DNA of 41,922 bases from Bacteroidota bacterium (lineage in GTDB: Bacteria; Bacteroidota; Ignavibacteria; Kapaibacteriales; UBA2268): positions 256,071 through 297,992 of the forward strand of contig SCSM01000007.1 in assembly GCA_004322215.1 (NCBI GenBank). The letters run 5' to 3'. The notes under the pieces were generated by a model that was not told the origin of the DNA, made no database searches, and saw nothing but the letters and a program-made list of their open reading frames with translations. The translations under genes were made by a program, and so were the position numbers. Shown here one piece after another: positions 5,799 through 41,922 of the stretch. How positions within the stretch are numbered: position 1 is the first letter of the stretch; every line of letters starts with the position of its first letter.

Positions 5799-5854
5799 AA
5801 AACTTTTCCTAAAATTGTAATTCTATTAAAGCATTTTAATAAATATCAACCGCA

Positions 5855-6058
5855 TTACAAAAATTTTCAATTTATAATTTTTAATTTTCAATCAATTTTT
5901 AATTTTATAATTTAAAATTTTTAAAACAAAACTCAAATAGAAATTATTTATTTATTAGGTTTTACCATAATCATTTCAATTTTATCATTTTTTATTTATT
6001 TATTTCAAATTCATTTTAAATTTTAAATTTCAAATTTCAAATTATCTTAATTACGTTA
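5855..6058. repeat. AT-rich TTTTCAA / TTTTAAA simple-sequence tracts
   Basis: The interval between the aminotransferase start and the M49-like stop is made largely of degenerate short words such as ATTTTCAA, AATTTTTAA and TTTCAAA. They resemble the tracts at 4536-4590 and 4697-4720. No gene is present. These look like locally expanded low-complexity spacers. Confidence 0.5.
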
Positions 6059-25050: not shown

Positions 25051-25632
25051 ATGAAGAGAATTATATGCTGTCTCTTAGCCGCAGGGATATTAGTCTTAGC
25101 ATCAATAAAATCGAATGCACAGGAAGTCAAACTGGACAGATTTGTAATTGGTACAGGTGGCATGGTTGCTAATGTAAATGATGCCAATATCAAAATGTCA
25201 GGAATTACCGGCCAAATCGCAATCGAAAAAATAGCCGGGACCGAACCGGTATATAACAATATGACAGTAGATATTTATCAGGGCTTTTGGGTGCCAGTCG
25301 GAGACTTCTTCTCAGGAGTAGAAGAAACAACAAGCTCAGAATATGGAAAAATTGTAAACTTTCCGAATCCATTCAGTAATTCAACAGTTGTAAAATACAA
25401 TTTGCCTACAAGCGGGTATGTTACAGTTAAAATTTATGACATGGCAGGGAATGTAATAAAGACATTATATAATGGATACCAAAATATGGGGGAACAGGAA
25501 TTGCCATGGAATGGCAAAGATGAATTGGGAGGAGTATTATCCTCAGGTTCGTATTTATATGAACTGAATTTCAGCCCCACATCTAATACCAAATCATATT
25601 CATTAAGAAATATAATGGTAATTCTTAAATAA
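25051..25632 (+). CDS. Secreted protein with FlgD-like T9SS C-terminal sorting domain
   Basis: A 193-residue protein. The signal peptide is residues 1-24 (ending SIKSNAQ), followed by a short region of about 80 residues with no recognised family. The C-terminal domain (about 100-193) reads VNFPNPFSNSTVVKYNLP, VTVKIYDMAGNVIKTLY, then LPWNGKDELGGVLSSGSYLY. This is the FlgD-Ig-like / T9SS type A sorting fold used for export and surface attachment in Bacteroidota and Ignavibacteria. A strong AAGGAG precedes the ATG. It ends 80 bases before the giant repeat protein with no terminator between, so the two are probably one transcript. A tiny T9SS cargo beside a giant fibre suggests an anchor or chaperone role, which is inference. 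Confidence 0.8.
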   Translation: MKRIICCLLAAGILVLASIKSNAQEVKLDRFVIGTGGMVANVNDANIKMSGITGQIAIEKIAGTEPVYNNMTVDIYQGFWVPVGDFFSGVEETTSSEYGKIVNFPNPFSNSTVVKYNLPTSGYVTVKIYDMAGNVIKTLYNGYQNMGEQELPWNGKDELGGVLSSGSYLYELNFSPTSNTKSYSLRNIMVILK

Positions 25633-25712: not shown

Positions 25713-28700
25713 ATGAGGAAGATTTTTCTTCGTAGTATCATTACAGTTTTGTTAACAATATTTTTATTGGTTAACAATTCTGTAGCTCAGATTCCAAGAA
25801 TCATGAATTATCAGGCAAGCCTGATTGGAGCAGACGCAAAACCAGTAAATGGTAAAGTAGTAGTAACATTTTCAATATTTGATGATGAAACATCGGGAGT
25901 GATACCTCTTTGGACAGAAGTTCAGAATGTTGATGTCAGCAATGGTTTTATGAATACCTATCTCGGACACACAGTTCCACTCAATTTACCTTTTGACAAA
26001 CAGTACTGGCTTGAAGTAAAGGTAAATGACGGTACACCATATCCAAGGACACAACTAACATCGTCACCATACACGATACATTCGTTACTTGCAACAAAAG
26101 CAGATACTGCCGACATTGCATTGACAGTTGTAGATGGGGCAATCACACAGTCAAAGTTAGATCCCGGTGTTAAGGCATTTCCATGGGGACCTGCAGGCGG
26201 TGTTTTAGCCGGAGAATATCCGAATCCGCAATTGAATCAGGATTCTCTTAGCAAATATGTTAGCGAAAATTTTATCAGACGCGATGAAGCATTACTCGGT
26301 GACCTTTCAGGAATTGCTGGTTTGCCTACTGTAGCTAAAATCAGAGGTATTCCTGTTTCACCTACTATTCCAAAGATTTATGAAACATTTATTTATAATG
26401 GTGATTTATGGAAGCCATCGCTTATACCTCCCCAAAGCTTGTTTGCAGATTCAGCTGTTGACGGTGATGTTCTGTTTTACAGAAATGGGCAATTTTCGTG
26501 GGAAATTCCTGTTCCTGCAGGACCAGCCGGAGGAGATTTGACAGGAACATATCCTAACCCAACATTATTTTCAATCCATGGAATCCCAATAACATCCACA
26601 CCACCTTTGAATAACTATATTTTCTATTATGATAGTTTGAATGGTCAACTTGCATGGAAAAATCAAGGTTCAGGTATTCCATGGATTACAGTAATGGATG
26701 TTTATCCTTTCAATACTTTTATTGGCTATCAAGTAGGACTAAACAATACGACAGGACAAAATAACGTTGGAATCGGATACAATGCATTTGTAAATAACAC
26801 GACCGGTAGTTATAATTCAACAACCGGTTCTTATTCTATGTTCAGTAACACAACATCGAATTACAATACGGCGGATGGTTTTTACGCAATGTACTCCAAT
26901 ACAACAGGAACAGATAATACAGCAATAGGAGCTAATTCACTCGAGTTAAACACTACAGGCGGACAAAATACAGCAGTAGGCCGTTTTGCATTAAACCAAA
27001 ATACAACCGGTAATTTAAATACGGCTACAGGATATAATGCTCTTTATAACAATACTACAGGAACAAACAACGCTGCCTTCGGCGATAATGCATTATATTC
27101 AAATACTACTGCAAATAATAATAGTGCATTTGGCTCACAGGCACTTAATTTAAATACAACAGGTGCCAACAATTCGGCTGTAGGCGCTAACGCCCTTTTG
27201 AATAATGCGACCGGTATTAATAATGTGGCAATTGGTTATAATTCCCTACAAAATAACACAACAGGGAATAACAATACAGCTAATGGAACTCAAGCATTAT
27301 ATTTTAACACTTTAGGAAGCTTTAATACTGCAACCGGTTCATCGGCACTTTATAACAATACATTAGGAAGCGGAAACTCAGCATACGGTAACTTTGCACT
27401 TTTCTCCAATACAACAGGAGGTAATAATACCGGGGTTGGAATTTCATCACTTCGTGCAAATTCAACCGGCAGTAATAATACAGGAATTGGTTCGAACACT
27501 TTATTTTCAAATACAGGTGGAAGTTTTAATACGGCTGCCGGAGACGGCGCTCTCTATTCCAACACAATTGGAAACGGGGGTACTGCTTACGGATATAATG
27601 CACTTTATAGTAATACAACCGGAGCTTTCAATACAGCTTCAGGTACAAATTCACTTTATAGTAACGTAACCTCTTCAAATAATTCTGCATTTGGTTATGC
27701 TGCTCTTTATACAAATACAGCAGGTAATAACAATACTGCAAACGGTTACCAGGCATTATACGGCACAACAACAGGCGGTGATAATACCGCAATTGGTGCC
27801 AATGCACAGGGTAATAACACTACCGGAGCCAATAATGTTGCGATCGGCAGCCAGGCATTACAAAGCCAATCCACCATATCCGGAAGTACTGCAATAGGAT
27901 TCCAGGCACTGCAAAGCAACACCGGTTCACCGAATACAGCAGTCGGTTATCGTGCATTAATGGTGAATACCACAGGAAGCAACAACACAGCAGTCGGTTA
28001 TTCGGTTTTAGGAAATAATACAACTGGAAGTGGAAATAACGCTTTCGGTTGGAATGCACTTTTGTTTAATACAACCGGTAATTTCAACAATGCATACGGT
28101 TATGCAGCACTTCAGAATAACACGACAGGAGCTGATAACGTTGCAGTAGGTTATAACGCTTTATTATCAAATACAACTGGTACTTTGAATACTGCTACAG
28201 GTAATTATTCATTGAGTGCTAATACAACAGGAACAGGTAACTCCGGGTTCGGCGTTAATGCACTTTTATCAAACACTGTTGGTACATATAATACTGCAGC
28301 AGGATATCAATCTTTAGCAGCAAACACAACAGGTAATGATAACACTGCAACAGGCTGGGGTGCTCTACAATCAAATACCACAGCTTCATTTAATACTGCT
28401 TCAGGTGTTTATGCTTTGAATTCAAATTCTACCGGTAGTCAGAATGTGAGTTATGGCGCTCAATCAATGCAGTTTAATACAATCGGAAATTTTAACGTAG
28501 CAATAGGTTTTGATGCTCTTCGTGCAAATACAACCGGGAATGGCAATACAGCAGGAGGTTATGGAGCACTTACTTCTAACACTACAGCAAATGATAATGT
28601 CGCTTTCGGTAATAATGCATTGTTATCAAATACAACAGGACCGCGGAATACCGGTGTCGGTTTCCATGCAATATATTCAAACTCAACCGGTTCAGACAAC

Positions 28701-31700
28701 ACAGCTATAGGTTACAATTCCTTAAGCATGGCACTAACAACCAGCAACAATACAGCTCTTGGTTCACAGGTACTCGTCTCGAATACCGGTAATGATAACA
28801 CTGCTGGTGGTTTCAGAGCTTTATTTGCAAATACTACCGGTAATTTCAATACAGCATTTGGTTCTTTATCTTTAAATGCAAATACAACCGGATTAAATAA
28901 TATCGCAGTCGGATATCAGTCGTTAACAGCAAATACAACCGGTGGTTCAAACTCAGCTTTAGGTAACCAGGCTTTATTTTCAAATACAGTAGGTATTCAA
29001 AATACAGCAACAGGTGCAGTTGCCTTATATTCAAATACAACCGGTCAGTTTAATACGGCAAATGGTTACAGTGCTTTATATTCAAATACAACAGGAAATA
29101 ATAATACAGCAACCGGTTTAGCAGCACTATATTGGAATTCAACAGCAAGCGATAATACTGCAAACGGTGCTTATGCTTTGGCTGCAACCACCACAGGTAT
29201 TAATAATACTGCAGTCGGTTCCATTGCATTACAATCGAACACTACAGGTGCTGATAACACTGCTATCGGATATGGAACTTTGAACAGTAACACAACCGGA
29301 TTGAGAAATACAGCTACTGGCGGACAGGCATCGCAATTCAATGCAGTCGGTAATAACAACGTAGCAACAGGTTATAGGGCTTTAAGAAATAATTCGGTCA
29401 GTGATAATACAGCATTAGGTTATTTAGCATTAACTGCAAATACAACAGGAACACCAAATACGGCAGTCGGCAACAGTGCAATGTTATCGAATACCACCGG
29501 AATTCAAAATACTGCTCTTGGTTATTTTGCACTCAGTGCTAATTTGGTTGGCAATCAAAATACTGCATTAGGTAATAGTGCGTTACAGTCTAACACTGCA
29601 AGTGGAAATACTGCAATTGGTAATTCTACACTATTGAATAATACTACAGGATTTTCAAACACAGCAGTTGGCAATGTTGCACTAAATGCCAATTCAACCG
29701 GATTTAGCAACGTGGCAGTCGGCGCTTCATCTCTATTCAATAATACAACCGGTGGAAATAATGTTGCCATTGGTAATTCAGCTTTATTTGCCAATACGAC
29801 TGTTAGCGGGCTTACAGCAATCGGTTACCAGGCTCTTACCGCAAATACAACCGGTTCCGGAAGTGTTGCAGTCGGGTTTAATTCCCAATTAGCCAATACA
29901 ACAGGTAATGACAATACATCAGTTGGTTATACTACTTTGTCTGCAAATACTACAGGTAGCCAAAATGTAGCTGTCGGTCGCAATGCACTTGCAGCCAATA
30001 CAACACCAAGTGGTGGTGTAGCGGTTGGCTACAATGCCTTAACGGCAAATACAACCGGAGCTAATAATACTGCAACGGGCTTTAATTCATTGGCAGCAAA
30101 TACAACCGGAGCTAATAATACTGCAAACGGTTATCAATCACTGTTGGTTAATACAACAGGTGGTTCGAATGTTGGACTTGGTTATCAGACATTAGCTGCA
30201 AATACAACTGCAAGTTTCAATACTGCAGTAGGTACAATTGCTTTACAGGCAAATACATCAGGTGCTGATAACACAGCATTAGGTTATGGTGCAATGAACA
30301 GCAATACAACCGGATTAAGGAATACAGCAACCGGCGAACAGGCATTGCAGTTTAATTTGACAGGTAATAACAACGTAGCAAACGGTTACCAGGCACTTAG
30401 AAATAATACAGTGAGTGATAATACCGCAGTCGGTTATTTAGCCCTCACTACTAATACAACCGGAACAAGCAATGTAGCAGTCGGTTACAATGCATTAACA
30501 GCAAACTCAACAGCTAATAACAATACAGCAGTCGGTTATTCTTCACTTGCGGCTAACACTACAGGTACAGGAAACTCGGCATTCGGGTATAATTCATTGT
30601 TGTCAAACACAATAGCAAATAATAATAGTGCATTCGGTAACCAAGCATTACAGAACAATACATTAGGTGGTTCAAATACAGCTGTGGGTTTCAGGGCACT
30701 TACTGCTAACGTAAGCGGTTCAAATAATACAGCAGTCGGTAATCAATCTCAGTTGGTTAACAGTACCGGAAGTGGTAATACATCTTTGGGTTCATTAACA
30801 CTTCAAGCAAATACAACAGGTGCAGACAATACAGCATCAGGTTATTCTTCTTTGTACAGTAACACAACTGGTAACCAAAACTCAGCTTACGGTGAATTTT
30901 CAATGTCAATGAATACAACCGGTAGTTTCAACGTTGCTTTCGGTTATAATGCACTGGCTACCAACACAACCGGGAATGGCAATACAGCAGGCGGTTATGG
31001 AGCATTGTTTTCTAATACTACTGCGATTGATAATGTAGCTTATGGTAATAATGCAATGTATTCAAATACAACAGGTGTACGTAACACAGGTATCGGTTTC
31101 CATGCTATATATTCAAATTCTACAGGTAATGACAATACTGTTTTGGGTTATAACTCATTAAGTACAATTGCAACCACTAGTAATAACACTGCTCTCGGTT
31201 CAAGGGTACTCGTTACAAGCACAGGGAATGATAATACAGGTGGTGGTGCTGCATCATTGTTTACAAATACCACAGGTAATTTCAATACATCTTACGGTTC
31301 ACAATCTATGTTTGCCAACACAACCGGAAGTAATAATGTGGCTGTAGGTAATAATTCCTTACTGACTAACAGTACAGGCGGCAATAATACCGCAGTTGGT
31401 TATAATGCACTTCAGGCAAATACTGTTAGCGGATTGACTGCTGTAGGTTACTTATCATTATTTGCAAATACAATCGGAACAAATAATACTGCAGTCGGTT
31501 TTTCAGCACTTACTGCTAACACAATCGGAAGCGGTAACTCGGCTTTCGGTTATAATGCTTTGACAACAAACTTAACAGGTGTTGATAATACTGCCGTTGG
31601 ACAATCTGCACTATTTTCAAACACAACAGGTGCTGATAACGTTGCTTTAGGCGTTAATGCACTCATATCAAATACAACCGGCAACTACAATGTCGCACTT

Positions 31701-33572
31701 GGTTCCGACGCTTTGTTTACAAATACAACAAATCATTATAATATCGCAATAGGATTCCAGTCGCTATTCTCTTCAAATAGCACTGCAAATACTGCTATCG
31801 GTTATGTTGCAATGCAACAAACGACAACAGGTTCGGGGAATACATCGCTGGGTTATTCGACTCTTCTTGCCAACACAACAGGCAGCCAAAATGTAGCAAT
31901 AGGTTACAATGCACTTGCTGCCACAACAACAGTTAACGGTTTAACTGGTGTCGGTTACCTTGCATTGAGTGCCAATACAACAGGTACAAATAATGCAGCG
32001 GTTGGTTTCCAGGCACTTGGTGTAAACACTACAGGCAGCTTTAATACTGTTTTGGGTTATAGTGCGTTAGATGCAAATACAATAGGAAATGACAACACTG
32101 CCGTTGGTTCGGATGTATTGACAGCCAATACAACAGGAAGTGACAACTCGGGATTGGGTTCGAATGTTCTCGCTGCCAACACGAGCGGATTTGAAAACAC
32201 TGCATTTGGTTCGCATGCACTTAACACCAACTCAACTGGTGATAACAATACTGCGACAGGTAATGATGCTTTGTTCTCAAATACAACAGGTTATTACAAT
32301 ACGGCAACAGGTTCTAATTCACTTCGTGCTAACACGACAGGATATGAAAACACAGCGACAGGATATAATAGTCTTCGTAACAACAATACGGGATATCATA
32401 ATACCGCAAATGGGTTTAGCTCGCTCCTGAACAACACAACAGGTTATCACAACACTGCATACGGGCATAGTTCACTATATTCAAACACAACAGGTATTAA
32501 TAACCTTGGTTTAGGATATACTGCTCTCTATCTCAATTCAACAGGTTCGAATAACATTGCTGCCGGAACGGACGTCCTTTACAATAACTCGACCGGTAAT
32601 AATAATTCGGCTTTCGGAGCTGAAGCTATCTTCTCTAACACAACAGGTGACGATAATACAGGAATGGGATTCTTTGTTCTTCATTCAAATACGACAGGTG
32701 ATAATAACACTGCTTTTGGAAGGGATGCTCTCTACTCTAATACAACCGGATTATATAATACCGGTGTTGGCCACTCGGCAGGTTATAGTAACTCAGTTGG
32801 AGGCGGTAATGTCTTTTTAGGTTATAATGCGGGATATTTTGAAACAGGAAGCAATAAGCTTTATATTGATAACAGCAATACTGCTACGCCACTTATTTAT
32901 GGTGACTTCTCGACTGATAACGTCACAATCAATGGTGCGTTGACAGTAACTAATGGTATTACCGGAAACATTAATAACTTAACAGGTGGTGCTGCAGGTA
33001 GTGTTCCTTACCAGACTGCAGTAAATACTACAACTTTCCTTGCTATCGGGGCAGTTAATACGATTATGACTTCGACAGGTTCTGCACCCCAGTGGGTTGC
33101 TTCATTGACCGACGCACAGGTTGATAACAATTTAACAATCAACGGCGGAACAATTGAAAACACTACGATAGGTGCCGTAACCCCAAGTACAGGTTCATTT
33201 GCAAGTGCTTCCGGAACAGCGGCTGTTACAGCAAACAATACCTCGACTGGTCCCGCACTTTCAGTAACAGATGGCGGCGGTTATATAAAGACATCATATA
33301 CAGGTGGCGCAGTTGCCGCTAATGTTTATACCATACCCGATGATGTAACGGTCGTTAATATAACATCAGATAATAATGCAACGACTGATGTAATTACAAA
33401 TCCGGCTGGAGTAGATGGTAAAATTCTTTATGTAACTTATACATGTCCTGCAAGCGATGATGATATAACAATCAATGGATTTACTTATGTTCTGACTACA
33501 GGACAAAAATTGGGTGTTACAATGGTCTATTCAGGAGCTACATGGTTTATAACAGGAGTTTATATACAATAA
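25713..33572 (+). CDS. Giant secreted fibre-like protein 1, ~119 x 17-residue repeats
   Basis: About 2,619 residues. The start is ATG 25713, with AAGGAG 8-10 bases upstream; an in-frame TTG at 25683 is less likely. The signal peptide is 1-26 (ending NNSVAQ). The N-terminal module (~27-140) is shared with the three downstream genes (IPRIMNYQASL, GVIPLW, NLPFDKQYWLEVKV, YPRTQLTSSPY). A linker follows with FIRRDEALLGDLSG and GPAGGDLTGTYPNPTL. Residues ~343-2374 are tandem 17-mers of the type NTTGxxNTAxGYxALxx. A closing module (SNKLYIDNSNT, LIYGDFST) and a ~230-residue C-terminal cap end with a GATWFITGVYIQ tail. Cysteine and charge are nearly absent from the repeats, and an Asn-ladder beta-solenoid is predicted. 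There is no T9SS domain or S74 chaperone. Likely an extracellular stalk; function unknown. Confidence 0.85.
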   Translation: MRKIFLRSIITVLLTIFLLVNNSVAQIPRIMNYQASLIGADAKPVNGKVVVTFSIFDDETSGVIPLWTEVQNVDVSNGFMNTYLGHTVPLNLPFDKQYWLEVKVNDGTPYPRTQLTSSPYTIHSLLATKADTADIALTVVDGAITQSKLDPGVKAFPWGPAGGVLAGEYPNPQLNQDSLSKYVSENFIRRDEALLGDLSGIAGLPTVAKIRGIPVSPTIPKIYETFIYNGDLWKPSLIPPQSLFADSAVDGDVLFYRNGQFSWEIPVPAGPAGGDLTGTYPNPTLFSIHGIPITSTPPLNNYIFYYDSLNGQLAWKNQGSGIPWITVMDVYPFNTFIGYQVGLNNTTGQNNVGIGYNAFVNNTTGSYNSTTGSYSMFSNTTSNYNTADGFYAMYSNTTGTDNTAIGANSLELNTTGGQNTAVGRFALNQNTTGNLNTATGYNALYNNTTGTNNAAFGDNALYSNTTANNNSAFGSQALNLNTTGANNSAVGANALLNNATGINNVAIGYNSLQNNTTGNNNTANGTQALYFNTLGSFNTATGSSALYNNTLGSGNSAYGNFALFSNTTGGNNTGVGISSLRANSTGSNNTGIGSNTLFSNTGGSFNTAAGDGALYSNTIGNGGTAYGYNALYSNTTGAFNTASGTNSLYSNVTSSNNSAFGYAALYTNTAGNNNTANGYQALYGTTTGGDNTAIGANAQGNNTTGANNVAIGSQALQSQSTISGSTAIGFQALQSNTGSPNTAVGYRALMVNTTGSNNTAVGYSVLGNNTTGSGNNAFGWNALLFNTTGNFNNAYGYAALQNNTTGADNVAVGYNALLSNTTGTLNTATGNYSLSANTTGTGNSGFGVNALLSNTVGTYNTAAGYQSLAANTTGNDNTATGWGALQSNTTASFNTASGVYALNSNSTGSQNVSYGAQSMQFNTIGNFNVAIGFDALRANTTGNGNTAGGYGALTSNTTANDNVAFGNNALLSNTTGPRNTGVGFHAIYSNSTGSDNTAIGYNSLSMALTTSNNTALGSQVLVSNTGNDNTAGGFRALFANTTGNFNTAFGSLSLNANTTGLNNIAVGYQSLTANTTGGSNSALGNQALFSNTVGIQNTATGAVALYSNTTGQFNTANGYSALYSNTTGNNNTATGLAALYWNSTASDNTANGAYALAATTTGINNTAVGSIALQSNTTGADNTAIGYGTLNSNTTGLRNTATGGQASQFNAVGNNNVATGYRALRNNSVSDNTALGYLALTANTTGTPNTAVGNSAMLSNTTGIQNTALGYFALSANLVGNQNTALGNSALQSNTASGNTAIGNSTLLNNTTGFSNTAVGNVALNANSTGFSNVAVGASSLFNNTTGGNNVAIGNSALFANTTVSGLTAIGYQALTANTTGSGSVAVGFNSQLANTTGNDNTSVGYTTLSANTTGSQNVAVGRNALAANTTPSGGVAVGYNALTANTTGANNTATGFNSLAANTTGANNTANGYQSLLVNTTGGSNVGLGYQTLAANTTASFNTAVGTIALQANTSGADNTALGYGAMNSNTTGLRNTATGEQALQFNLTGNNNVANGYQALRNNTVSDNTAVGYLALTTNTTGTSNVAVGYNALTANSTANNNTAVGYSSLAANTTGTGNSAFGYNSLLSNTIANNNSAFGNQALQNNTLGGSNTAVGFRALTANVSGSNNTAVGNQSQLVNSTGSGNTSLGSLTLQANTTGADNTASGYSSLYSNTTGNQNSAYGEFSMSMNTTGSFNVAFGYNALATNTTGNGNTAGGYGALFSNTTAIDNVAYGNNAMYSNTTGVRNTGIGFHAIYSNSTGNDNTVLGYNSLSTIATTSNNTALGSRVLVTSTGNDNTGGGAASLFTNTTGNFNTSYGSQSMFANTTGSNNVAVGNNSLLTNSTGGNNTAVGYNALQANTVSGLTAVGYLSLFANTIGTNNTAVGFSALTANTIGSGNSAFGYNALTTNLTGVDNTAVGQSALFSNTTGADNVALGVNALISNTTGNYNVALGSDALFTNTTNHYNIAIGFQSLFSSNSTANTAIGYVAMQQTTTGSGNTSLGYSTLLANTTGSQNVAIGYNALAATTTVNGLTGVGYLALSANTTGTNNAAVGFQALGVNTTGSFNTVLGYSALDANTIGNDNTAVGSDVLTANTTGSDNSGLGSNVLAANTSGFENTAFGSHALNTNSTGDNNTATGNDALFSNTTGYYNTATGSNSLRANTTGYENTATGYNSLRNNNTGYHNTANGFSSLLNNTTGYHNTAYGHSSLYSNTTGINNLGLGYTALYLNSTGSNNIAAGTDVLYNNSTGNNNSAFGAEAIFSNTTGDDNTGMGFFVLHSNTTGDNNTAFGRDALYSNTTGLYNTGVGHSAGYSNSVGGGNVFLGYNAGYFETGSNKLYIDNSNTATPLIYGDFSTDNVTINGALTVTNGITGNINNLTGGAAGSVPYQTAVNTTTFLAIGAVNTIMTSTGSAPQWVASLTDAQVDNNLTINGGTIENTTIGAVTPSTGSFASASGTAAVTANNTSTGPALSVTDGGGYIKTSYTGGAVAANVYTIPDDVTVVNITSDNNATTDVITNPAGVDGKILYVTYTCPASDDDITINGFTYVLTTGQKLGVTMVYSGATWFITGVYIQ
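28425..28945 (+). repeat. Higher-order repeat block A (copy 1)
   Basis: A run of about ten units whose order, including the irregular segment TTSNNTALGS(Q/R)VLV, recurs at 30861-31381 with a constant 2,436-base offset. It keeps landmark phrases NGNTAGGYGAL, GFHAIYSNSTG and STGNDNT / NTGNDNT. Confidence 0.8.
29201..29470 (+). repeat. Higher-order repeat block X (copy 1)
   Basis: Five units recurring at 30215-30484 with a constant 1,014-base offset. Both copies share GLRNTATG, GNNNVA and the one-residue-short unit (V-S-D-N-T-A), which argues for segmental duplication instead of convergence. Confidence 0.8.
30215..30484 (+). repeat. Higher-order repeat block X (copy 2)
   Basis: Partner of 29201-29470. 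Corresponding phrases are GADNTALGYGAMNSNTTG, GLRNTATGEQAL and NNTVSDNTAVGYLAL. A diverged relative lies in fibre gene 2 near 36215-36350. Confidence 0.8.
30861..31381 (+). repeat. Higher-order repeat block A (copy 2)
   Basis: Partner of 28425-28945 at a fixed offset and equal length (521 bases), with the same irregular units in the same order. Confidence 0.8.
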
Positions 33573-33595
33573 ACCATCTGTAAGTAAAATGATTT

Positions 33596-33625
33596 AAAGG
33601 GCGAAGCGATTCGCCCTTTTTTTTT
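33596..33625 (+). terminator. Intrinsic terminator after fibre gene 1
   Basis: Stem AAGGGCGAA / TTCGCCCTT with loop GCGA, followed by a run of nine T residues. It lies about 25 bases after the stop codon. Confidence 0.92.
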
Positions 33626-33860
33626 ACCGCTGCCCCATCCTGATAATATGAAAATCAAAACTCTTACAATAAATATTTTTTCTTGATTACATTTCAATTA
33701 TTTAATAATTTAGTAAGTTAATAGTTGCTAAATATTAATTTAGTAAATCAAAATAAACTTTTTAATCAAAAAAATATATTTCTATTAATTATAGCTAATT
33801 TATTGCGTGAAAACAAAAACAAATAAAAATGATTTTTTAAATTTTTTGAGGGAGAATTTT

Positions 33861-36800
33861 ATGAAGATGTCGAATAAAGCATTATTGATTGTATTGATTA
33901 TGACGATACTTTCAATCAATGGAGCATTTTCTCAGGTGCCTAAGTTAATAAATTACCAGGCAAGCTTGCTGGACGAGCAAAATAAACCCATTAACGGGAA
34001 TGTAGTACTGACTTTTTCAATATTTACAGACGAAACATCCGGAGTCATACCGTTGTGGTCAGAGGTACAGAATGTCGAGGTAAAAAACGGTTTTGTGAAT
34101 ACCTATATGGGACAAATCGTACCAATCAATCTGCCGTTTGACAAACAATACTGGCTTGAAATAAAAGTAGGAGACGGGTCACCATACCCAAGGACCAGAC
34201 TTTCATCATCACCATATACGATACATGCCATTTCTGCAATAAAAGCAGATACGGCAGATATTGCATTCACAGTCGTAGACGGAGCAATCACCCAGGCGAA
34301 GTTAGACCCGGGAGTAAAAGCTATTCCCTGGGGTAATGCAGGTGGAATACTAACAGGACAGTACCCCAATCCGTCATTAAATAAAGATACATTATTTAAT
34401 TTAGTTGATGATAATTTCATCAGACGCGATGAGGCATTATTAGGAGATTTATCAGGTACGTTGTTATCGCCGATAGTTGCAAAGATTCGGGGTATTGTTG
34501 TATCGCCGACTTCGCCTTTGTTATGGCAAACTTTTGTATATGACGGCACGAAATGGAAGCCGTCATTCCTGACTCCTAACAGCTTGAGTTCTGACGTCCC
34601 TTTTGAAAACGATGTATTATTTTACAGAAGCGGAAACTTTGAATGGGATATAGCATCACCAGCCGGACCTGCCGGAGGCGACCTGACGGGAACATACCCG
34701 AATCCTACTCTGAAGTCAATTATGGGAATACCAATTACAACAACTCCTCCGACCAACGGATACCTTGCATATTATGATGGCATAAACAATGAAATCAGTT
34801 GGAAAAATCCTGCATTTGCAATTCCATGGTTGACTATTCAGACTGCAACTCCATATGGAACCTTTGTGGGGTATCAGGCAGGAAATTTTAATTCAGGTAC
34901 ACTTAATACTTTTGTAGGTTATAATTCTGGTGCTCAGAATACTTCCGGTTCATTCAATACAGGTATAGGAGAAGGAACACTTTACTCAAACATTGCAGCT
35001 AATCACAATACTGCACTCGGCACAGCCGCATTGCAGAATAATATATCAGGTGAATACAACACTGCATTAGGTTCATCCTCACTATTTTATAATACTACAG
35101 GTAACCATAATACAGCAGCAGGATTTCGGTCTTTAGTTAATAATACAACCGGAAGTTACAATACAGCAAACGGTTCATTGTCATTACAGGCAAATACAAC
35201 CGGTGCAAATAATACAGCTTTGGGTAATCAATCATTACAAAATAATACTACCGGGAATGAAAACACAGGATTAGGTGATAATACACTGAAATCAAATACA
35301 ACCGGGAATGATAACACAGCTTCAGGAGCTTCAGCACTTTATTACAACACATCAGGAAGCAACAACACAGCTAATGGAACATTTGCATTGCAATCCAATA
35401 CAACGGGTAATAATAATACAGCAATCGGTAATACGGCATTATATACAAATACCACAGGTAGTAATAATTCTGCTGTCGGTTCACAAGCTCTTTTGTTTAA
35501 TACTTCCGGAAGCCAAAACACTGCCGTCGGTAATAATGCTCTCGAGAATAATACAACAGGTGATTGGAATACTTCAGTTGGTTTTAATGCATTATGGTAT
35601 AATTCAACAGGTACAGGCAATGTAGCCACCGGTTCACAATCCTTATATAATAATACCAATGGAAGTAATAATACAGCTTTGGGCTGGAATTCACTTTTCA
35701 ATAATTCTACAGGAAATAATAATTCCGGATTCGGATCACAGTCATTATATTCGAATACAACAGGAAATTCAAATACAGCAGCAGGTGTGAATTCTCTATA
35801 CTCAAATACAACAGGAAATTTTAACACGGCAATGGGCTTGGATGCATTATATACGAATACGGCAGGCGGGAGTAATTCTGCATTCGGATATCAATCGCTT
35901 TACTCAAACACAGCAGGTAATTGGAATACTGCTACAGGCAATTTGGCGTTATATTCAAATACAACCGGTTCAAATAATACAGCAAACGGTGATGAATCGC
36001 TATATTCAAATACAACCGGTTCATATAATACTGCCGGAGGTGTGGCAGCACTATATCTAAATACAGGTGGAAATTATAACACAAGTTATGGTGCGAATAC
36101 TTTATTTGCAAATTCCACAGGAAATGATAATACAGCGGTTGGATATTATGCATTGTATTCTAATACAACCGGTTCGTACAATACAGCTTTAGGTAATGGG
36201 GCTCTATATTCAAATGGAGCAAGCAATAACACTGCTGTGGGTTATTCGGCACTCAATTCGAATACAACAGGAGACCGGAACACGGCTACGGGTATACAGG
36301 CGATGCAGTATAACATAACCGGTTTCAATAATACTGCAACAGGAGCCGGGGCTTTAGGTAATAACACAACAGGTTCTTATAACACTTCGACCGGTTCATC
36401 TTCATTATATAATAATATCTCAGGTTCTAATAATGTTGCTTACGGTTCATTTTCACTGTTTTCGACAAGTACCGGAGATGATAATACAGCATACGGATAT
36501 TTTTCCTTAGGATATAACACAACCGGTACGAGTAATACATCAATAGGTTTTATGACATTAAATGCAAATATTACCGGTGTTAATAATACAGTCTTAGGAG
36601 CAACGGCAGGTTATAATAGTACCGGCGACGGAAATGTATTTATTGGTTACCAGGCAGGTTATAATGAATTAGGAAGTAATAAATTATATATTGCTAATAG
36701 CAGTACTAATCCACCTCTTATATACGGAGATTTCAGTACGGCAAGAGTAGCAGTAGGAACAATAACTCCAAGTGCAACACCTTTCACAGTAGTCGGATTG

Positions 36801-36902
36801 CCAATATATGCAAATAATGCTGCGGCAGTTGCAGGTGGTTTGACAGTAGGTGCATTTTACCGAACCGGCGGCGACCCGGACGTTGTTTGTGTCGTTCACT
36901 AA
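33861..36902 (+). CDS. Secreted fibre-like protein 2, ~35 x 17-residue repeats
   Basis: About 1,013 residues. The start is ATG 33861 with GAGGGAGA upstream; an in-frame GTG at 33807 would add 18 polar residues before the signal peptide and is rejected. The signal peptide ends INGAFSQ. The N-terminal module and linker closely follow fibre 1: VPKLINYQASLLDEQNKPIN, NLPFDKQYWLEIKV, then FIRRDEALLGDLSG and GPAGGDLTGTYPNPTL. Repeats span residues ~343-935, with the same 17-residue consensus. The closing module is SNKLYIANSSTNPPLIYGDF. The C-terminal cap is different: AVAGGLTVGAFYRTGGDPD then VVCVVH-end, a small tail also seen at the ends of phage-tail-like and collagen-like proteins. Same putative role as fibre 1 with a shorter stalk. 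Confidence 0.85.
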   Translation: MKMSNKALLIVLIMTILSINGAFSQVPKLINYQASLLDEQNKPINGNVVLTFSIFTDETSGVIPLWSEVQNVEVKNGFVNTYMGQIVPINLPFDKQYWLEIKVGDGSPYPRTRLSSSPYTIHAISAIKADTADIAFTVVDGAITQAKLDPGVKAIPWGNAGGILTGQYPNPSLNKDTLFNLVDDNFIRRDEALLGDLSGTLLSPIVAKIRGIVVSPTSPLLWQTFVYDGTKWKPSFLTPNSLSSDVPFENDVLFYRSGNFEWDIASPAGPAGGDLTGTYPNPTLKSIMGIPITTTPPTNGYLAYYDGINNEISWKNPAFAIPWLTIQTATPYGTFVGYQAGNFNSGTLNTFVGYNSGAQNTSGSFNTGIGEGTLYSNIAANHNTALGTAALQNNISGEYNTALGSSSLFYNTTGNHNTAAGFRSLVNNTTGSYNTANGSLSLQANTTGANNTALGNQSLQNNTTGNENTGLGDNTLKSNTTGNDNTASGASALYYNTSGSNNTANGTFALQSNTTGNNNTAIGNTALYTNTTGSNNSAVGSQALLFNTSGSQNTAVGNNALENNTTGDWNTSVGFNALWYNSTGTGNVATGSQSLYNNTNGSNNTALGWNSLFNNSTGNNNSGFGSQSLYSNTTGNSNTAAGVNSLYSNTTGNFNTAMGLDALYTNTAGGSNSAFGYQSLYSNTAGNWNTATGNLALYSNTTGSNNTANGDESLYSNTTGSYNTAGGVAALYLNTGGNYNTSYGANTLFANSTGNDNTAVGYYALYSNTTGSYNTALGNGALYSNGASNNTAVGYSALNSNTTGDRNTATGIQAMQYNITGFNNTATGAGALGNNTTGSYNTSTGSSSLYNNISGSNNVAYGSFSLFSTSTGDDNTAYGYFSLGYNTTGTSNTSIGFMTLNANITGVNNTVLGATAGYNSTGDGNVFIGYQAGYNELGSNKLYIANSSTNPPLIYGDFSTARVAVGTITPSATPFTVVGLPIYANNAAAVAGGLTVGAFYRTGGDPDVVCVVH
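34891..36665 (+). repeat. 51-bp coding tandem repeat, about 35 units
   Basis: The same 17-residue pattern as in fibre gene 1. Units 36215-36350 (NNTAVGYSALNSNTTGDRNT, then ATGIQAMQYNITG) resemble block X of gene 1. Confidence 0.88.
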
Positions 36903-36932
36903 TAAATAGTCAATAATATTTTTTATTAAATA

Positions 36933-36965
36933 AACACCTGCTCAATTCGAGCGGGTGTTTTTTTT
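36933..36965 (+). terminator. Intrinsic terminator after fibre gene 2
   Basis: Stem AACACCTGCTC / GAGCGGGTGTT (11 bp with one G-T pair), then a T-tract of about nine, 30 bases after the stop codon. Confidence 0.9.
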
Positions 36966-37151
36966 ATCATTTAGAACAGATAAATTTTTGTCAAATTATA
37001 TTTATTTAATAAATTAAAAATATTATAGCAGCATATTTTATTATTTTATTCTGATTATGAATATCGAGGAATTTTAAACGCGAAAATATAATACATATAA
37101 ATTCACTTTATAGAAAAATTATTATTATTCATTTTTATTTTTGGAGGTAAA

Positions 37152-39641
37152 ATGAAAAGATTTATCTTCTGCATGATGACAAGTCTTATTATAATGCTTT
37201 TATCAATCGTCTCGAGCAATTCACAGGTACCGAAGATAATCAACTACCAGGCAAGTTTAATGGATGAAACGAACAAGCCGATTAACGGCACCGTAACAAT
37301 CACTTTTGCAATATTCTCAGATGAAGTTACGGGAGTAATACCATTATGGGCAGAAAACCGGAGTGTAGATGCAGTAAACGGTTTTGTCAATATCTATTTG
37401 GGGGAAGTGGTGCCTATCAATCTCCCATTTGACAGACCTTACTGGCTGGAAGTAAAGTTGGGAGACGCACCAGCTTATCCGAGAACAAGATTATCAACAG
37501 TACCATACGCTTATATGTCGCTCAGAACATACAGAGCAGATACGGCAATAATTGCCGAATCCGTAATCGAGAACGGAATTAAACAAAATATGCTGGACCC
37601 AAATATAAAGACATTACCCTGGGGACCTGCCGGAGGATATCTGGATGGAAATTATCCGAATCCAACATTAAATCCTGACTCTTTAAACAAATTAATATCA
37701 GGGGGATTCATTGAAATTAATCAAAATGCCGGCGGTGATTTAAACGGTCAATACCCAAATCCCTCTATTCGTGATTCAGCCGTAACAGCAATAAAACTTC
37801 GGTCAAGTGCAGTTACAACAGTTAAAATAGCAGACTCTGCAGTCACACAAAGAAAGATTGCTTTTGATGCAGTTAATGTAGATAACATAGATGTGAGGAA
37901 TCATATCGGAGGAGCATTGGCACCATCGGCATCGGCAATAACGTTTGACGGCTCAAATGTTGTATGGGGTTATCCAAGTCCCGGCGGCAGTGCGGGAGGA
38001 GACCTTGGAGGCACATATCCATCACCACAGGTAAGGGGATTGAGAGGTGTACCGATTTCATCAATACCTGCACCAAGCGATAATGAGGTTTATGTTTTCA
38101 GAGATTACGGTACTCCTTCAACTTTGGATGATAAATTTGTTTCTCAGAAAATAATACCGGATAATTTATGGTCATATAATACTACTCCACTCGGTGCGGC
38201 AGAAGACAATTATTTATTATCATGGGATTGGAATGGTGGAGCCGACCCGAGAATGAGATGGATATCTCCGACTTCACTTTCAATAAATTCTGCAATTCCA
38301 ATTATTGGAGATGGGACACCTGGAAATCCGATAACTTTGAATAGAGCCGGTATCGCTTCTTATGAAGTTTACTATATGAGTCCGACAACAAGTTCATGGA
38401 CCCATGGTAAACTGATTCCACAGAACTTTGTAGCAACTCCATCGAGTCCGGGTGCGGGTGAAGACGGATACGTGCTCTCATGGAACAATTCGAATACCAT
38501 GATGCAATGGAGCGGAGTAACAAGTGCAATGATAGTTGACGGTTCGATTGTCGATGCTGACGTAAATTCGGCAGCAGCTATAGCAGGAACAAAAATCAAT
38601 CCTGATTTCGGTACACAAAATATCGTAACACTTGGAAATATTTCGGCAGCGAGTGGAAGCTTCACTGGAATATTAGGTTCGTCATCTGCAACAATAACCG
38701 GCGATATGATTGGTATCGGAACTACTACACCGAACAATGACATCCAGGTTGTTGGCTTGATTAATTTCGATAATTCATTGAATGGAACATTTCTTGGATA
38801 TCAAGCCGGTAACGTGAATGCTTCGAGTGACAACACATTTGTCGGTTTTCTAACAGGACAATCCAACACAAGTGGAACAGCAAATACAGGCCTGGGCTCT
38901 GTATCATTACAAAATAATACAACCGGAAACGAAAATACTGCTGTTGGTGTTCAGGCACTTTGGTACAATATAAGCGGGTATAATAATTCAGCATTTGGTT
39001 ATCAATCACTTGCTTCAAATACTGTCGGCTATAATAATTCTGCTTATGGAATGTTTTCACTTGTATTCAATGAATCAGGTAATAATAATACATCAATAGG
39101 TGAAGCATCCGGATTTAATTCAATAGGAAGCGGCAATGTATTTCTGGGTTACCAGGCAGGTTATAACGAAACAGGTAGCAATAAACTTTATATTGCAAAT
39201 TCGAGTACAAATCCACCTTTGATATATGGCGATTTTTCAACCGGTGCTATTGCACTTGGAACTATTACACCTACTGTGGGGGCTATATTAACTGTGTCAA
39301 ACACAGCAACCGGTTCAGGTATATCCGTTGATAATGGTGCAGGAACCGGTAGTGCTATTGCTGTTACAGACGGCGGAGGTGATTTGAAATTATCATTCGG
39401 TACACTTGCCGGTACCGATGCGGGAATAACGATTCCCGGCGATATTTCGGTTTTTGAAATTACAGCAGGAACTGAAACAGGTGCTTTTGCAGTTACTATG
39501 CCTACTGCCGTATCAGGGAAGATTTTATTTATAAGAAATAATTCCGGACAGCAGGCAAATTTATCTGCTGGTGGGAATATAGCATCAGGAGCAGGTTCTA
39601 CATTAATATCAAACGGAACGACCTGGTTCAAGGCACAATAA
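37152..39641 (+). CDS. Secreted fibre-like protein 3, ~7 x 17-residue repeats
   Basis: 829 residues; the ATG is preceded by GGAGG. The signal peptide ends VSSNSQ. The shared N-terminal module follows (VPKIINYQASLMDETNKPIN, NLPFDRPYWLEVKL, YPRTRLSTVPY). The middle (~190-540) is long and differs from fibres 1-2 but matches fibre 4: GGDLNGQYPNPSIRDSAV, a run of D-S-A-V-T-x-x-K-I units, GSAGGDLGGTYPSPQV, IPIIGDGTPGNPITLN and EDGYVLSWNNSNTMMQW. A short repeat tract of about seven units (38811-39175) comes before SNKLYIANSSTNPPLIYGDF. The cap ends in GAGSTLISNGTTWFKAQ and is related to the cap of fibre 1. The A-V-T-x-x-K-I units recall phage tail-fibre stems. Confidence 0.83.
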   Translation: MKRFIFCMMTSLIIMLLSIVSSNSQVPKIINYQASLMDETNKPINGTVTITFAIFSDEVTGVIPLWAENRSVDAVNGFVNIYLGEVVPINLPFDRPYWLEVKLGDAPAYPRTRLSTVPYAYMSLRTYRADTAIIAESVIENGIKQNMLDPNIKTLPWGPAGGYLDGNYPNPTLNPDSLNKLISGGFIEINQNAGGDLNGQYPNPSIRDSAVTAIKLRSSAVTTVKIADSAVTQRKIAFDAVNVDNIDVRNHIGGALAPSASAITFDGSNVVWGYPSPGGSAGGDLGGTYPSPQVRGLRGVPISSIPAPSDNEVYVFRDYGTPSTLDDKFVSQKIIPDNLWSYNTTPLGAAEDNYLLSWDWNGGADPRMRWISPTSLSINSAIPIIGDGTPGNPITLNRAGIASYEVYYMSPTTSSWTHGKLIPQNFVATPSSPGAGEDGYVLSWNNSNTMMQWSGVTSAMIVDGSIVDADVNSAAAIAGTKINPDFGTQNIVTLGNISAASGSFTGILGSSSATITGDMIGIGTTTPNNDIQVVGLINFDNSLNGTFLGYQAGNVNASSDNTFVGFLTGQSNTSGTANTGLGSVSLQNNTTGNENTAVGVQALWYNISGYNNSAFGYQSLASNTVGYNNSAYGMFSLVFNESGNNNTSIGEASGFNSIGSGNVFLGYQAGYNETGSNKLYIANSSTNPPLIYGDFSTGAIALGTITPTVGAILTVSNTATGSGISVDNGAGTGSAIAVTDGGGDLKLSFGTLAGTDAGITIPGDISVFEITAGTETGAFAVTMPTAVSGKILFIRNNSGQQANLSAGGNIASGAGSTLISNGTTWFKAQ
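38811..39175 (+). repeat. 51-bp coding tandem repeat, about 7 units
   Basis: A short tract of the same 17-residue pattern (NTTGNENTAVGVQALWY and neighbours) in fibre gene 3. Confidence 0.85.
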
Positions 39642-39667
39642 AAAATAATAATAAATACTATTTAGAA

Positions 39668-39698
39668 AAGCACAGTTTTCGAACTGTGCTTTTTTTTT
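39668..39698 (+). terminator. Intrinsic terminator after fibre gene 3 (UUCG loop)
   Basis: Perfect 10-bp stem AAGCACAGTT / AACTGTGCTT closed by a TTCG loop and followed by nine T residues. A very strong rho-independent terminator. Confidence 0.95.
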
Positions 39699-39933
39699 GG
39701 TGTATGATGAATTATGAAAATCAAATTCAGGTAAAATTAAGTTTTTGATTAACTCACTATAATTAATTTCAAAAATAAACATTTCCAACTCTATAAGACA
39801 TATATAATAAAGTAGTTAGAGCTTCAATAACTTTTAGAAAATAAAAGGGCATATTTTTTGATATTGGATAGTTGTGTGCTTTATTTTATTGAAAATATAA
39901 GCTAATAAGTAATATTTTTTTAGTGGAAAAAAT

Positions 39934-41922
39934 ATGAAAAAAAATAAATATATATTGTTAGCTGTAATGCTAATTGCTTTATCTGTGAATATAATCTATT
40001 CACAGGTTCCCCGGATAATTAATTATCAGGCGAGTGTTATGGATAATGATAATAAACCGATGAATGGTTATGTGACCATGACATTTGCAATATTCCAGGA
40101 TGAATATGCGGGAGTAATACCCCTCTGGGCGGAAAACCGGGGTGTTGAAATAATAAATGGTTTTATAAATGTATATATAGGTGAAGTCAATCCGATTAAT
40201 CTTCCATTTGATAGAACATATTGGCTTGAAGTAAAGATTGGAGACACACATCCTTACCCGAGGACACGGCTTTCTACTGTTCCTTATTCTTTCATGTCAT
40301 TAAGAACATTAAGAGCAGATACTGCTGTAATTGCAGAATCAATTATTGAGAACGGAATAAAACAATCAATGCTGGACCCGACCATCAAAGCCATACCATG
40401 GGGAAAAGCATCTGGGTTCTTATCCGGCTATTACCCAAGTCCATCGTTAAACCTCGATTCATTGAATAAATTAATCTCACTTGGTTTCATCAGATTAAAT
40501 CAGGATGCCGGAGGTGATTTAACAGGTCAATATCCTAATCCTATTATAAAGGATAATGCAATAAATTCTGAAAAAATAGAAAGTAATGCAGTAACAAATT
40601 CAAAAATAGATGCTGGTGCGATTACACAGGATAAAATATCGTTGAATGCTGTAAATGTAGATAACATAGATGCACACCAGCATATCGGCGGAACTTTTGC
40701 TCCAATTGCTTCATCAATTATGTACGATGGCAGCAAAGTTTATTGGGGTAATCCAAGCCCGGGCGGTGGAGCAGGAGGCGATTTAAGCGGTCTATTCCCT
40801 TCCCCTCAAGTTATTGGCTTACGTGGAATTCCAATTGCAGATTTCCCAACTTTAGAAGATAACCAGGTATATGTTTTTAGAAATTATGGTACACCAAGTA
40901 ATGACGATGACAAATGGATAGCTCAAAAAATCAAACCGGAAAACTTATATACGTTTAGTGATACTGCACTTGGAATGACTGAGAACGGATATGTCCTTTC
41001 CTGGGATTGGAATGGAGGAGCAAATCCCAAAATGAGATGGATTAACTTCAATTCACAATTGCTGAATACAGCATTACCGATTGTTGGCAATGGAGAGCCA
41101 GCAAATCCGATAACATTGAACAGAAGCGGTGTTTCAGCTTTTGAGATGTATTATCTAAGTCCGACAACTGGTTCCTGGACTTATGGTAAATTGACCCCTG
41201 AACATTTCATTGCATCCCCTTCAAGTCCCGGACTTGCAGAGAATGGATATGTACTTTCATGGAATAATTCGAATACAATGATGCAATGGGTACAACCAAT
41301 AGTCAGAACAGCAATGCCGATAATAGGTGATGGTTCACTTGGCAACGAAATTACACTTAATACTTCAGGTGTACTTGCTAATGATGTGCTTGTATATAAT
41401 GGAGCAAATTGGTCATACAGCAAGGTTCAGACACCGATGTTAGCAGACTTTGCAGTAACAACTGCAAAAATAGCCGATAAAAATATAACTGTCGGAAAAA
41501 TAAATAATGGAGCTGATGATAATATTTTAGTAACAGTTGCCGGAAATACTGTCTGGCAAAACATGAATTTATCTACAACTTTTACAGGAAATGGGGTTAG
41601 TATCCCGTTAGGTATAGCAGCCGGAGCAATCACAGCTACAGAACTTGCAGATGCTTCGGTAAACAATTCAAAACTCGGATTATTATCCGTAGCTACATCA
41701 AATATTCAGGATAATGCTATTACAATTTCAAAAATTAATCCTGGTATTGCAAATTCTGTTTTAATAACAAATGCATCAGCTACATCAACCACTTGGAGCC
41801 AGATCTCTGCCTCTAACATGTCGGCAGGTGATTACTCGAGTGTAGTCAACTCAGGAACTTATACAATTGATATTACTGGCAATGCAGGAACAGTAACGAA
41901 TGGTGTTTACACAACCGGTTCT
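39934..41922 (+). CDS. Secreted fibre-like protein 4 (runs off the window end)
   Basis: An open frame of 663 codons from ATG 39934 to the window edge with no stop. The signal peptide is about 1-24 (ending NIIYSQ). The shared N-terminal module follows (VPRIINYQASVMDNDNKPMN, NLPFDRTYWLEVKI, YPRTRLSTVPY). Up to about residue 450 it parallels fibre 3: GGDLTGQYPNPIIKDNAI, AVNVDNIDAHQHIGG, GAGGDLSGLFPSPQV and NGYVLSWNNSNTMMQW. Beyond that it has more K-I stem units (AVTTAKIADKNITVGKI, GAITATELADASVNNSKL, DNAITISKINPG) and a TGNAGTVTNGVYTTGS end. No 17-residue repeats are visible yet; they may lie beyond the edge. The start has TAGTGGAAAAAAT upstream, a weak ribosome site. Confidence 0.85.
   Translation, partial: MKKNKYILLAVMLIALSVNIIYSQVPRIINYQASVMDNDNKPMNGYVTMTFAIFQDEYAGVIPLWAENRGVEIINGFINVYIGEVNPINLPFDRTYWLEVKIGDTHPYPRTRLSTVPYSFMSLRTLRADTAVIAESIIENGIKQSMLDPTIKAIPWGKASGFLSGYYPSPSLNLDSLNKLISLGFIRLNQDAGGDLTGQYPNPIIKDNAINSEKIESNAVTNSKIDAGAITQDKISLNAVNVDNIDAHQHIGGTFAPIASSIMYDGSKVYWGNPSPGGGAGGDLSGLFPSPQVIGLRGIPIADFPTLEDNQVYVFRNYGTPSNDDDKWIAQKIKPENLYTFSDTALGMTENGYVLSWDWNGGANPKMRWINFNSQLLNTALPIVGNGEPANPITLNRSGVSAFEMYYLSPTTGSWTYGKLTPEHFIASPSSPGLAENGYVLSWNNSNTMMQWVQPIVRTAMPIIGDGSLGNEITLNTSGVLANDVLVYNGANWSYSKVQTPMLADFAVTTAKIADKNITVGKINNGADDNILVTVAGNTVWQNMNLSTTFTGNGVSIPLGIAAGAITATELADASVNNSKLGLLSVATSNIQDNAITISKINPGIANSVLITNASATSTTWSQISASNMSAGDYSSVVNSGTYTIDITGNAGTVTNGVYTTGS

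What the first reader, a model, noticed from the sequence alone, without database searches (positions are those of the whole stretch)
25713..41922. Tandem array of four paralogous secreted fibres with graded repeat length
Four adjacent plus-strand genes share a signal peptide plus an N-terminal module (P-(K/R)-(I/L)-(I/M)-N-Y-Q-A-S, GVIPLW, NLPFD-x-x-YWLE, YPRT). Their repeat tracts are about 119, 35, 7 and (so far) 0 units. Repeat-rich proteins of this style occur in FCB genomes, but a tandem set of graded length looks like a dedicated surface-stalk locus. Function (adhesion, cell spacing, prey or surface contact) is inference.
Basis: partly seen in the sequence, partly recalled or inferred. 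Interest (0 to 1): 0.78.

Follow-up and report, generated by a model that had tools for sequence, protein, structure and literature searches.

The report
Anchored phage-like fibre gene array
Four neighbouring genes probably make long phage-like surface fibres related at their base to the fibres of predatory Bdellovibrio, and the small gene in front of them belongs to a family that in many bacteria sits beside such fibre genes and may be the missing part that holds the fibres on the cell.

Summary
Four plus-strand paralogues share a ~120-residue N-module and carry about 120, 36, 7 and 0 NTTG-type 17-residue units. The contig ends inside gene 4; its likely end is on contig C25, followed by unrelated genes. 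Graded length is not conserved: in congener G051 gene 2 has no such units and another end, though its N-module is 81% identical. The N-module is a remote homologue of the N-terminal domain of Bdellovibrio MAT fibres (96 of 100 modules match NF053851, below its cut-off). The larger result is the small gene upstream (25051-25632): a ~52-residue "GF" domain without a Pfam match and a T9SS type A tail. Of 90 GF genes in 54 family genomes, 77 adjoin an N-module gene, all on the same strand (0.22 expected); in 21 genomes taken from other phyla 25 of 32. Conversely 74 of 122 N-module runs have a GF gene. GF proteins carry different tails (58 of 77 T9SS-like), and GF stays beside N-modules placed on RCC1 repeats. 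Best reading: GF proteins anchor MAT-like fibres. Binding is inferred.

The parts
25051..25632 (+). GF-domain protein (193 aa): signal peptide by eye, GF domain at residues 24-84, T9SS type A sorting domain at residues ~104-175; candidate surface anchor of the fibres
   Evidence: TIGR04183 27.5 bits, cut-off 23; Pfam Por_Secre_tail 20.2, under its cut-off 27, FlgD_ig 37.8, over 27; GF profile A4; about 80 bp upstream of gene 1
25713..33572 (+). Fibre gene 1 (2619 aa): signal peptide by eye, MAT-like N-module, linker, long repeat tract, end of the type shared with genes 3 and 4
26745..32840 (+). Gene 1 tract of about 120 17-residue NTTG units (about residues 345-2376; coordinates worked out by hand)
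33596..33619 (+). Terminator-like hairpin after gene 1
   Evidence: 20 terminator-like sites in the region, 10.6 expected
33861..36902 (+). Fibre gene 2 (1013 aa), 36 units; last 53 residues unlike the ends of genes 1, 3 and 4
36932..36960 (+). Terminator-like hairpin after gene 2
37152..39641 (+). Fibre gene 3 (829 aa), about 7 units; end like that of gene 1 (41 of 121 aligned residues identical, z 14 against shuffles)
39664..39695 (+). Terminator-like hairpin after gene 3
39934..41922 (+). Fibre gene 4, cut by the contig end; its 3' part probably lies at the start of contig C25

Best explanation
The locus makes a family of fibres homologous at their base to Bdellovibrio MAT fibres, together with a small surface-anchored protein that holds them. 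Each fibre has a signal peptide; its N-module sits at the cell end, a phage-like repeat stalk projects outward, and an exchangeable C-terminal end does the binding. The GF protein carries a short conserved domain near its N-terminus and a T9SS type A tail. By what is known of such tails it should cross the outer membrane and be joined to anionic LPS, and there its GF domain would dock the fibre N-module. One GF protein may serve several fibres: gene 1 follows GF with no terminator-like site between, and genes 2 to 4 look separately transcribed. Shown by calls: remote homology to the MAT N-domain, near-exclusive placing of GF genes beside N-module genes in many phyla, joint inheritance of pairs, different tails on GF, different stalks and ends on the fibres. 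Inferred: physical binding, trimer formation, LPS attachment, the fibres' export route and an adhesive role.
For: MAT homology: the Bdello_MAT_N model gives 7 matches at E<=1 in the own genome, all on N-module genes (six genes; array gene 1 not among them); 96 of 100 N-modules match it at E<=0.01, best 4.3e-13, and two other models match one module each. [quoted passage not shown] AlphaFold gives a confident five-strand domain here. Pairing: 77 of 90 GF genes adjoin an N-module gene, 77 of 77 on the same strand, 0.22 expected; leaving out the 21 places used to build the GF profile, 58 of 69. Of the other 13, 6 lie 0.7-1.7 kb away on the same strand and 7 have none on their contig; 5 of these 7 were read: 4 follow an ORF cut by the contig end that looks fibre-like by eye, 1 lies ~140 bp from a contig end. 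Genomes taken from other phyla: 25 of 32, 0.13 expected; without 9 at the loci by which the genomes were chosen, 16 of 23 (my count). Genome presence goes together: 45 both, 4 neither, 4 N-module only, 1 GF only, Fisher p 0.001. Pairs: N and GF distances correlate at 0.796 over 48 pairs in 15 genomes; reshuffling partners within genomes gives mean 0.134, max 0.498 of 5000. In three proteins the N-module is C-terminal (RCC1 repeats by Pfam in one, by eye in another) and a GF gene is next door. Tails: 58 of 77 GF proteins match the T9SS type A domain at E<=0.001, 6 IPTL-CTERM, 2 choice-of-anchor U. SprA of the T9SS is present.
Against: No binding data. In the family 48 of 122 N-module runs have no GF gene found next to them; in 64 complete neighbourhoods 32 have none within 700 bp (that sample is biased, part of it was fetched because GF was missing). 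In the 21 genomes taken from other phyla, 8 have no GF match and only 12 have an adjoining pair. So many fibres would have to share a GF protein, use one too divergent to find, or do without. Distance correlation is also expected from linkage alone. NF053851 scores lie under its cut-off of 60 bits. The GF domain is of low confidence in the model (22 rows). No ORF fuses GF and N-module. Three of the four array ends are of one type, which is less variety than in MATs. Bdellovibrio genomes could not be searched.
Confidence: 0.62

Rival explanations
1. GF protein is an export escort: it binds the fibre N-module in the periplasm and carries the tail-less fibre through the T9SS with it, rather than being only an anchor.
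For: No T9SS sorting domain was found in the array fibres (gene 4 only in part) or in 7 other N-module proteins (Pfam); most GF proteins carry one.
Against: Some GF proteins carry IPTL-CTERM or other tails instead; the pair also occurs in genomes taken from other phyla, where T9SS was not checked.
Confidence: 0.2
2. GF protein is an independent surface protein or a cap made at the same time; the genes are together because they are expressed together, with no contact between GF and N-module.
For: Adjacency alone cannot show contact; two of 77 GF proteins match Kelch motifs, so some carry other parts; many fibres have no GF gene beside them.
Against: GF stays when stalk and end are replaced by RCC1 or other sequence and only the N-module remains (three cases); the pairing recurs in genomes of many phyla.
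Confidence: 0.15
3. Ordinary trimeric autotransporter-like or phage-derived genes with no dedicated partner; the array is a chance tandem duplication.
For: Repeats match phage tail-spike families; relatives carry S74, YadA-head and tail-collar domains; most runs in the family are single genes; one viral model resembles the N-module weakly (Foldseek E 9e-4, TM below 0.5).
Against: No YadA membrane anchor was found in Pfam; N-module not found in phage or plasmid records by tblastn; GF pairing far above chance.
Confidence: 0.08

Closest known systems
Bdellovibrio mosaic adhesive trimer (MAT) superfamily, PMC10769870 (abstract, sections 10 and 16 and passages seen)
   Same: Signal peptide, homologous beta-rich N-domain at the same place, long stalk, differing ends including S74 (own contig C6); several copies per genome
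   Different: Scores under the Bdellovibrio model's cut-off; NTTG-type stalk repeats; a small GF or T9SS-tailed protein beside all four N-module loci of the own genome (two by the GF profile, two divergent ones, partly by eye). The MAT paper says the surface element bound by the N-domain awaits identification
Phage tail spikes and tail fibres with S74 chaperone or Collar domain
   Same: NTTG repeats match PHROGs tail spike 4636 and virion structural 23837 and 6002; own-genome relatives end in S74 or Collar
   Different: Signal peptide and N-module; no N-module in phage records by tblastn
T9SS type A substrates (TIGR04183)
   Same: GF protein has a signal peptide (by eye) and a type A sorting domain over the NCBIfam cut-off
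   Different: Small, with the GF domain as its only other recognised part, tied to fibre genes
CPR-type pilus protein PamT, NCBIfam NF058579
   Same: Its N-terminal part matches GF domains: all 5 matches at E<=0.01 in 54 genomes fall on GF genes
   Different: Far below cut-off (23 against 240 bits), no match in the own genome; no paper with the word PamT found in the library

Membership tests
[quoted passage not shown]
   96 of 100 N-modules match NF053851 at E<=0.01; five-strand confident model; remote homology only
NCBIfam NF053851 Bdello_MAT_N as curated | Score at or above 60 bits | tested here: not met
   21.5 bits for gene 2's module; no match over cut-off in the own genome; so described as MAT-like homologue, not filed in that subfamily
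Bdellovibrio MAT superfamily | Diversified C-terminal ends, S74 or other | tested here: met
   Own genome: S74 (C6), Collar (C26), two end types in the array (genes 1, 3 and 4 alike, gene 2 apart) and a third in gene 2 of congener G051
Bdellovibrio MAT superfamily | Trimeric fibre displayed on the surface | not testable with these tools
   Only single-chain models; no microscopy
Trimeric autotransporters (type Vc, YadA) | C-terminal YadA membrane anchor domain | tested here: not met
   No Pfam match at E<=0.1 in genes 1 and 2, only unrelated sub-cut-off ones in genes 3 and 4 (gene 4 scanned without its end)
YadA head repeat (PF05658) | Pfam match of the stalk repeats | tested here: not met
   None in array genes; met in relative L114
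T9SS type A substrates | C-terminal sorting domain over cut-off | tested here: met
   GF protein: TIGR04183 27.5 bits, cut-off 23; Pfam's own model is under its cut-off (20.2 of 27); not found in the fibres
CPR pilus protein PamT (NF058579) | Score at or above 240 bits | tested here: not met
   Best 23 bits in 54 genomes
Known solved fold for the N-module | Clear structural match in the PDB | tested here: inconclusive
   Best Foldseek E 0.011, best VIA Z 6.8

The most novel reading that the evidence does not exclude
The MAT N-domain and the GF domain are a general, cross-phylum docking pair on bacterial surfaces: any projecting module (phage-like fibre, RCC1 repeats) carrying the N-domain is caught by a GF protein whose tail selects the local anchoring route (T9SS, IPTL-CTERM, membrane helix). 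This would name the missing surface element of Bdellovibrio MAT fibres and tie it to the pilus protein PamT of CPR bacteria.
Probability: 0.4. Interest if true: 0.85.

Novelty: new variant of a known kind. Interest (0 to 1): 0.68.

Why it matters
MAT fibres are thought to let predatory Bdellovibrio recognise prey, but what holds them on the cell was left open in the paper that named them. A near-exclusive, same-strand gene partner with varying surface tails gives a concrete candidate and a simple binding test. It also places MAT-like fibres in genomes of many phyla as a possible general surface-binding kit.

Tried and rejected
Graded repeat length as a design: rejected, not conserved in gene 2 of congener G051. 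A solved homologue of the N-module or GF domain: none by sequence for gene 2 and the GF profile, one chance-level row for the N-module (E 1.1); fold searches gave generic Ig-like sandwiches and one viral model at E 9e-4 with TM below 0.5, inconclusive. Phage or plasmid origin of the N-module: no tblastn match with gene 2's module. RNA elements: no Rfam match in the window. A second GF-like type with a GVQQP ending beside other fibres: profile comparison with the main type was inconclusive (E 0.0036, probability 9), so it was counted apart; the C26 neighbour (175 aa) was likened to GF by eye only. PamT in print: two searches, no paper with the word. Earlier notice of such a partner in print: searches listed none by title and abstract start (the GF domain has no name to search for). 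Seen beyond listings: PMC10769870 (abstract, two sections, passages) and PMC12618676 (passages). Bdellovibrio genomes could not be reached. A read-through model of GF plus N-module was considered and not made: GF and fibre share a frame in 1 of 13 loci checked.
Full report
OBSERVATION. The window is the last 41,922 bases of contig C16 of a 4.2 Mb genome. Four plus-strand genes at 25713-33572, 33861-36902, 37152-39641 and 39934-41922 share a signal peptide (by eye) and an N-module; identities to gene 1 are 51-65%. A profile of the four finds them and three other genes in the genome, on contigs C42, C26 and C6. A position-specific scan gives 121, 36, 8 and 0 repeat units, mostly 17 residues apart; one shuffled copy of each gives 9, 0, 1 and 0 hits. 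Gene 4 is cut by the contig end. A search with its congener orthologue finds a continuation at the start of contig C25, where the frame ends after 410 codons and is followed by unrelated minus-strand genes. Its end resembles that of gene 1 (47 of 123 aligned residues identical, z 15 against shuffles) and it has no NTTG. No exact contig overlap was found, so the link rests on homology. On that reading the array has four members.

ARE THE LENGTHS GRADED BY DESIGN? Two congeners have the same array behind a GF gene; the third, G053, shows a single N-module. Units are 120, 0, 8, 0 in G051 and 81+37 (frame broken), 28, 9, 0 in G052; gene 4 is incomplete in all three. Gene 2 of G051 keeps an N-module 81% identical to ours but has another stalk and an end unlike all others compared. 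In our array genes 1, 3 and 4 share one end type and gene 2 has another behind a common cap. Array copies of three genomes form one clade with 95/96 support; genes 1, 3 and 4 group by position, gene 2 less clearly, on few columns. So the array is an old duplication in the genus, and stalk and end can be swapped. In 54 genomes of the family, 49 have the module; 105 of 122 runs are single genes and 17 are tandem runs in 12 genomes, 6 genomes with three or more.

WHAT THE FIBRES ARE. NCBIfam's Bdello_MAT_N model gives seven matches at E<=1 in the genome, all on N-module genes (six genes; array gene 1 is not among them). Scanned one by one, 96 of 100 modules match it at E<=0.01, best 4.3e-13; two other models match one module each; the own genome's scores are under the curated cut-off of 60 bits. 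[quoted passage not shown] AlphaFold gives a confident five-strand domain here (mean pLDDT 83.7, pTM 0.71) with no clear solved homologue and one weak viral look-alike. The repeats of genes 1-3 match phage tail-spike and virion-structural families. Own-genome relatives end in an S74 chaperone (C6, with the same style of repeats by eye) or a phage tail Collar domain (C26); a family relative combines YadA-head repeats with S74. Gene 2's N-module has no tblastn match in phage or plasmid records.

THE MISSED GENE. Directly upstream lies a 193-residue protein with a T9SS type A sorting domain (TIGR04183 27.5 bits, cut-off 23; Pfam's model scores 20.2, cut-off 27). An iterated profile of its first domain picks out proteins next to fibre genes in many loci. 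The domain, here named GF after its Gly-Phe-Trp end, is about 52 residues and begins at residue 16-38 in 76 of 82 ORFs. Pfam matched nothing there in 10 proteins, and the list for 77 proteins names no family that could be it, though positions are shown for the first protein only. The PamT model of CPR pili has five matches at E<=0.01 in 54 genomes, none in ours, and all five are GF genes.

PAIRING. In the 54 genomes, 77 of 90 GF places lie within about 600 bp of an N-module gene, all 77 on the same strand, 48 upstream and 29 downstream; 0.22 are expected (gene ends estimated from open-frame length). Without the 21 places used in training it is 58 of 69. Of the other 13, six are 0.7-1.7 kb away on the same strand and seven have no N-module on their contig; of the five of these read, four follow an ORF cut by the contig end that looks fibre-like by eye and one lies about 140 bp from a contig end; the last two start within 600 bp of a contig's first base. 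In 21 genomes behind loci of other phyla (two of the records unnamed) it is 25 of 32, 24 on the same strand, 0.13 expected, in 12 of 21 genomes; 8 of 21 have no GF match. Nine of the 25 are the loci by which the genomes were chosen, leaving 16 of 23. The reverse is weaker: 74 of 122 N-module runs in the family have a GF gene beside them. In 64 complete neighbourhoods held as loci, 29 have a GF gene, 3 a GVQQP-type gene and 32 neither within 700 bp; 41 more lie at edges (11, 3 and 27); 11 redundant loci were dropped, and part of the loci were fetched because GF was missing or present. One chromosome has 23 modules and six GF places. Sharing of one GF by several fibres, as in this array, would explain that, but is not shown.

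SPECIFICITY AND SWAPPING. N-module and GF distances correlate at 0.734 over 50 pairs (2000 permutations reach 0.165). Reshuffling partners only inside the 15 genomes that hold several pairs drops 0.796 to a mean of 0.134, at most 0.498 of 5000. This shows the pair travels as a unit; linkage alone could give it. In three proteins the N-module sits at the C-terminus; one carries RCC1 repeats by Pfam and a second looks alike by eye, and the GF gene is directly downstream. So GF goes with the N-module, not with stalk or end. GF proteins carry different tails: of 77 non-redundant ones, 58 match the T9SS type A domain at E<=0.001, 6 IPTL-CTERM and 2 choice-of-anchor U; the rest match none of these.

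MECHANISM. Type A tails are known to be recognised by PorV, and the PorU sortase complex cuts them and links the protein to anionic LPS (PMC12618676, passages). The translocon SprA is in this genome. I therefore infer that the GF protein is displayed on LPS and docks the N-module, with stalk and end projecting. Modelled alone, GF is of low confidence outside its tail, which fits folding on a partner or a thin alignment. Terminator-like hairpins follow genes 1, 2 and 3 but none lies between GF and gene 1, so GF and gene 1 are probably one transcript and genes 2-4 separate ones. If each repeat is one turn of a YadA-like roll (about 0.5 nm, recalled), the stalks would span roughly 60, 17 and 3 nm; that is a guess.

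VERDICT. Array real; lengths not graded by design; fibres are MAT-like homologues; the GF gene family is a strong candidate for their surface anchor. Binding, trimer state and function remain to be tested.

Noticed in passing
L138 (own genome C26) 5643-6179 and L150 2-433: A small protein that looks like an Hcp tube protein of type VI secretion, with a signal peptide in L138, lies directly upstream of a tail-collar-like fibre gene in two genomes (by eye only).
   Followed up: no
L129, L130, L131: N-module at the C-terminus of RCC1-repeat or other proteins, GF gene directly downstream.
   Followed up: yes
L064 12466-18618: A 2050-residue Omnitrophota protein right after two tandem N-module genes begins with a GF-like stretch (by eye), not found by the profile.
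   Followed up: no
Window 23206-24675; L050, L051, L054, L055, L133: The same rRNA-methyltransferase-like gene lies divergently upstream of the GF gene in several genomes, so the locus looks ancestral (by eye).
   Followed up: partly
L096 5998-7560 and 12075-13544: GF-domain proteins of about 500 residues with extra sequence between GF and the T9SS tail; two of 77 GF proteins match Kelch motifs, probably these.
   Followed up: partly
G054 (Gemmatimonadota chromosome behind L059): 23 N-module genes on one chromosome with only 6 GF places.
   Followed up: partly
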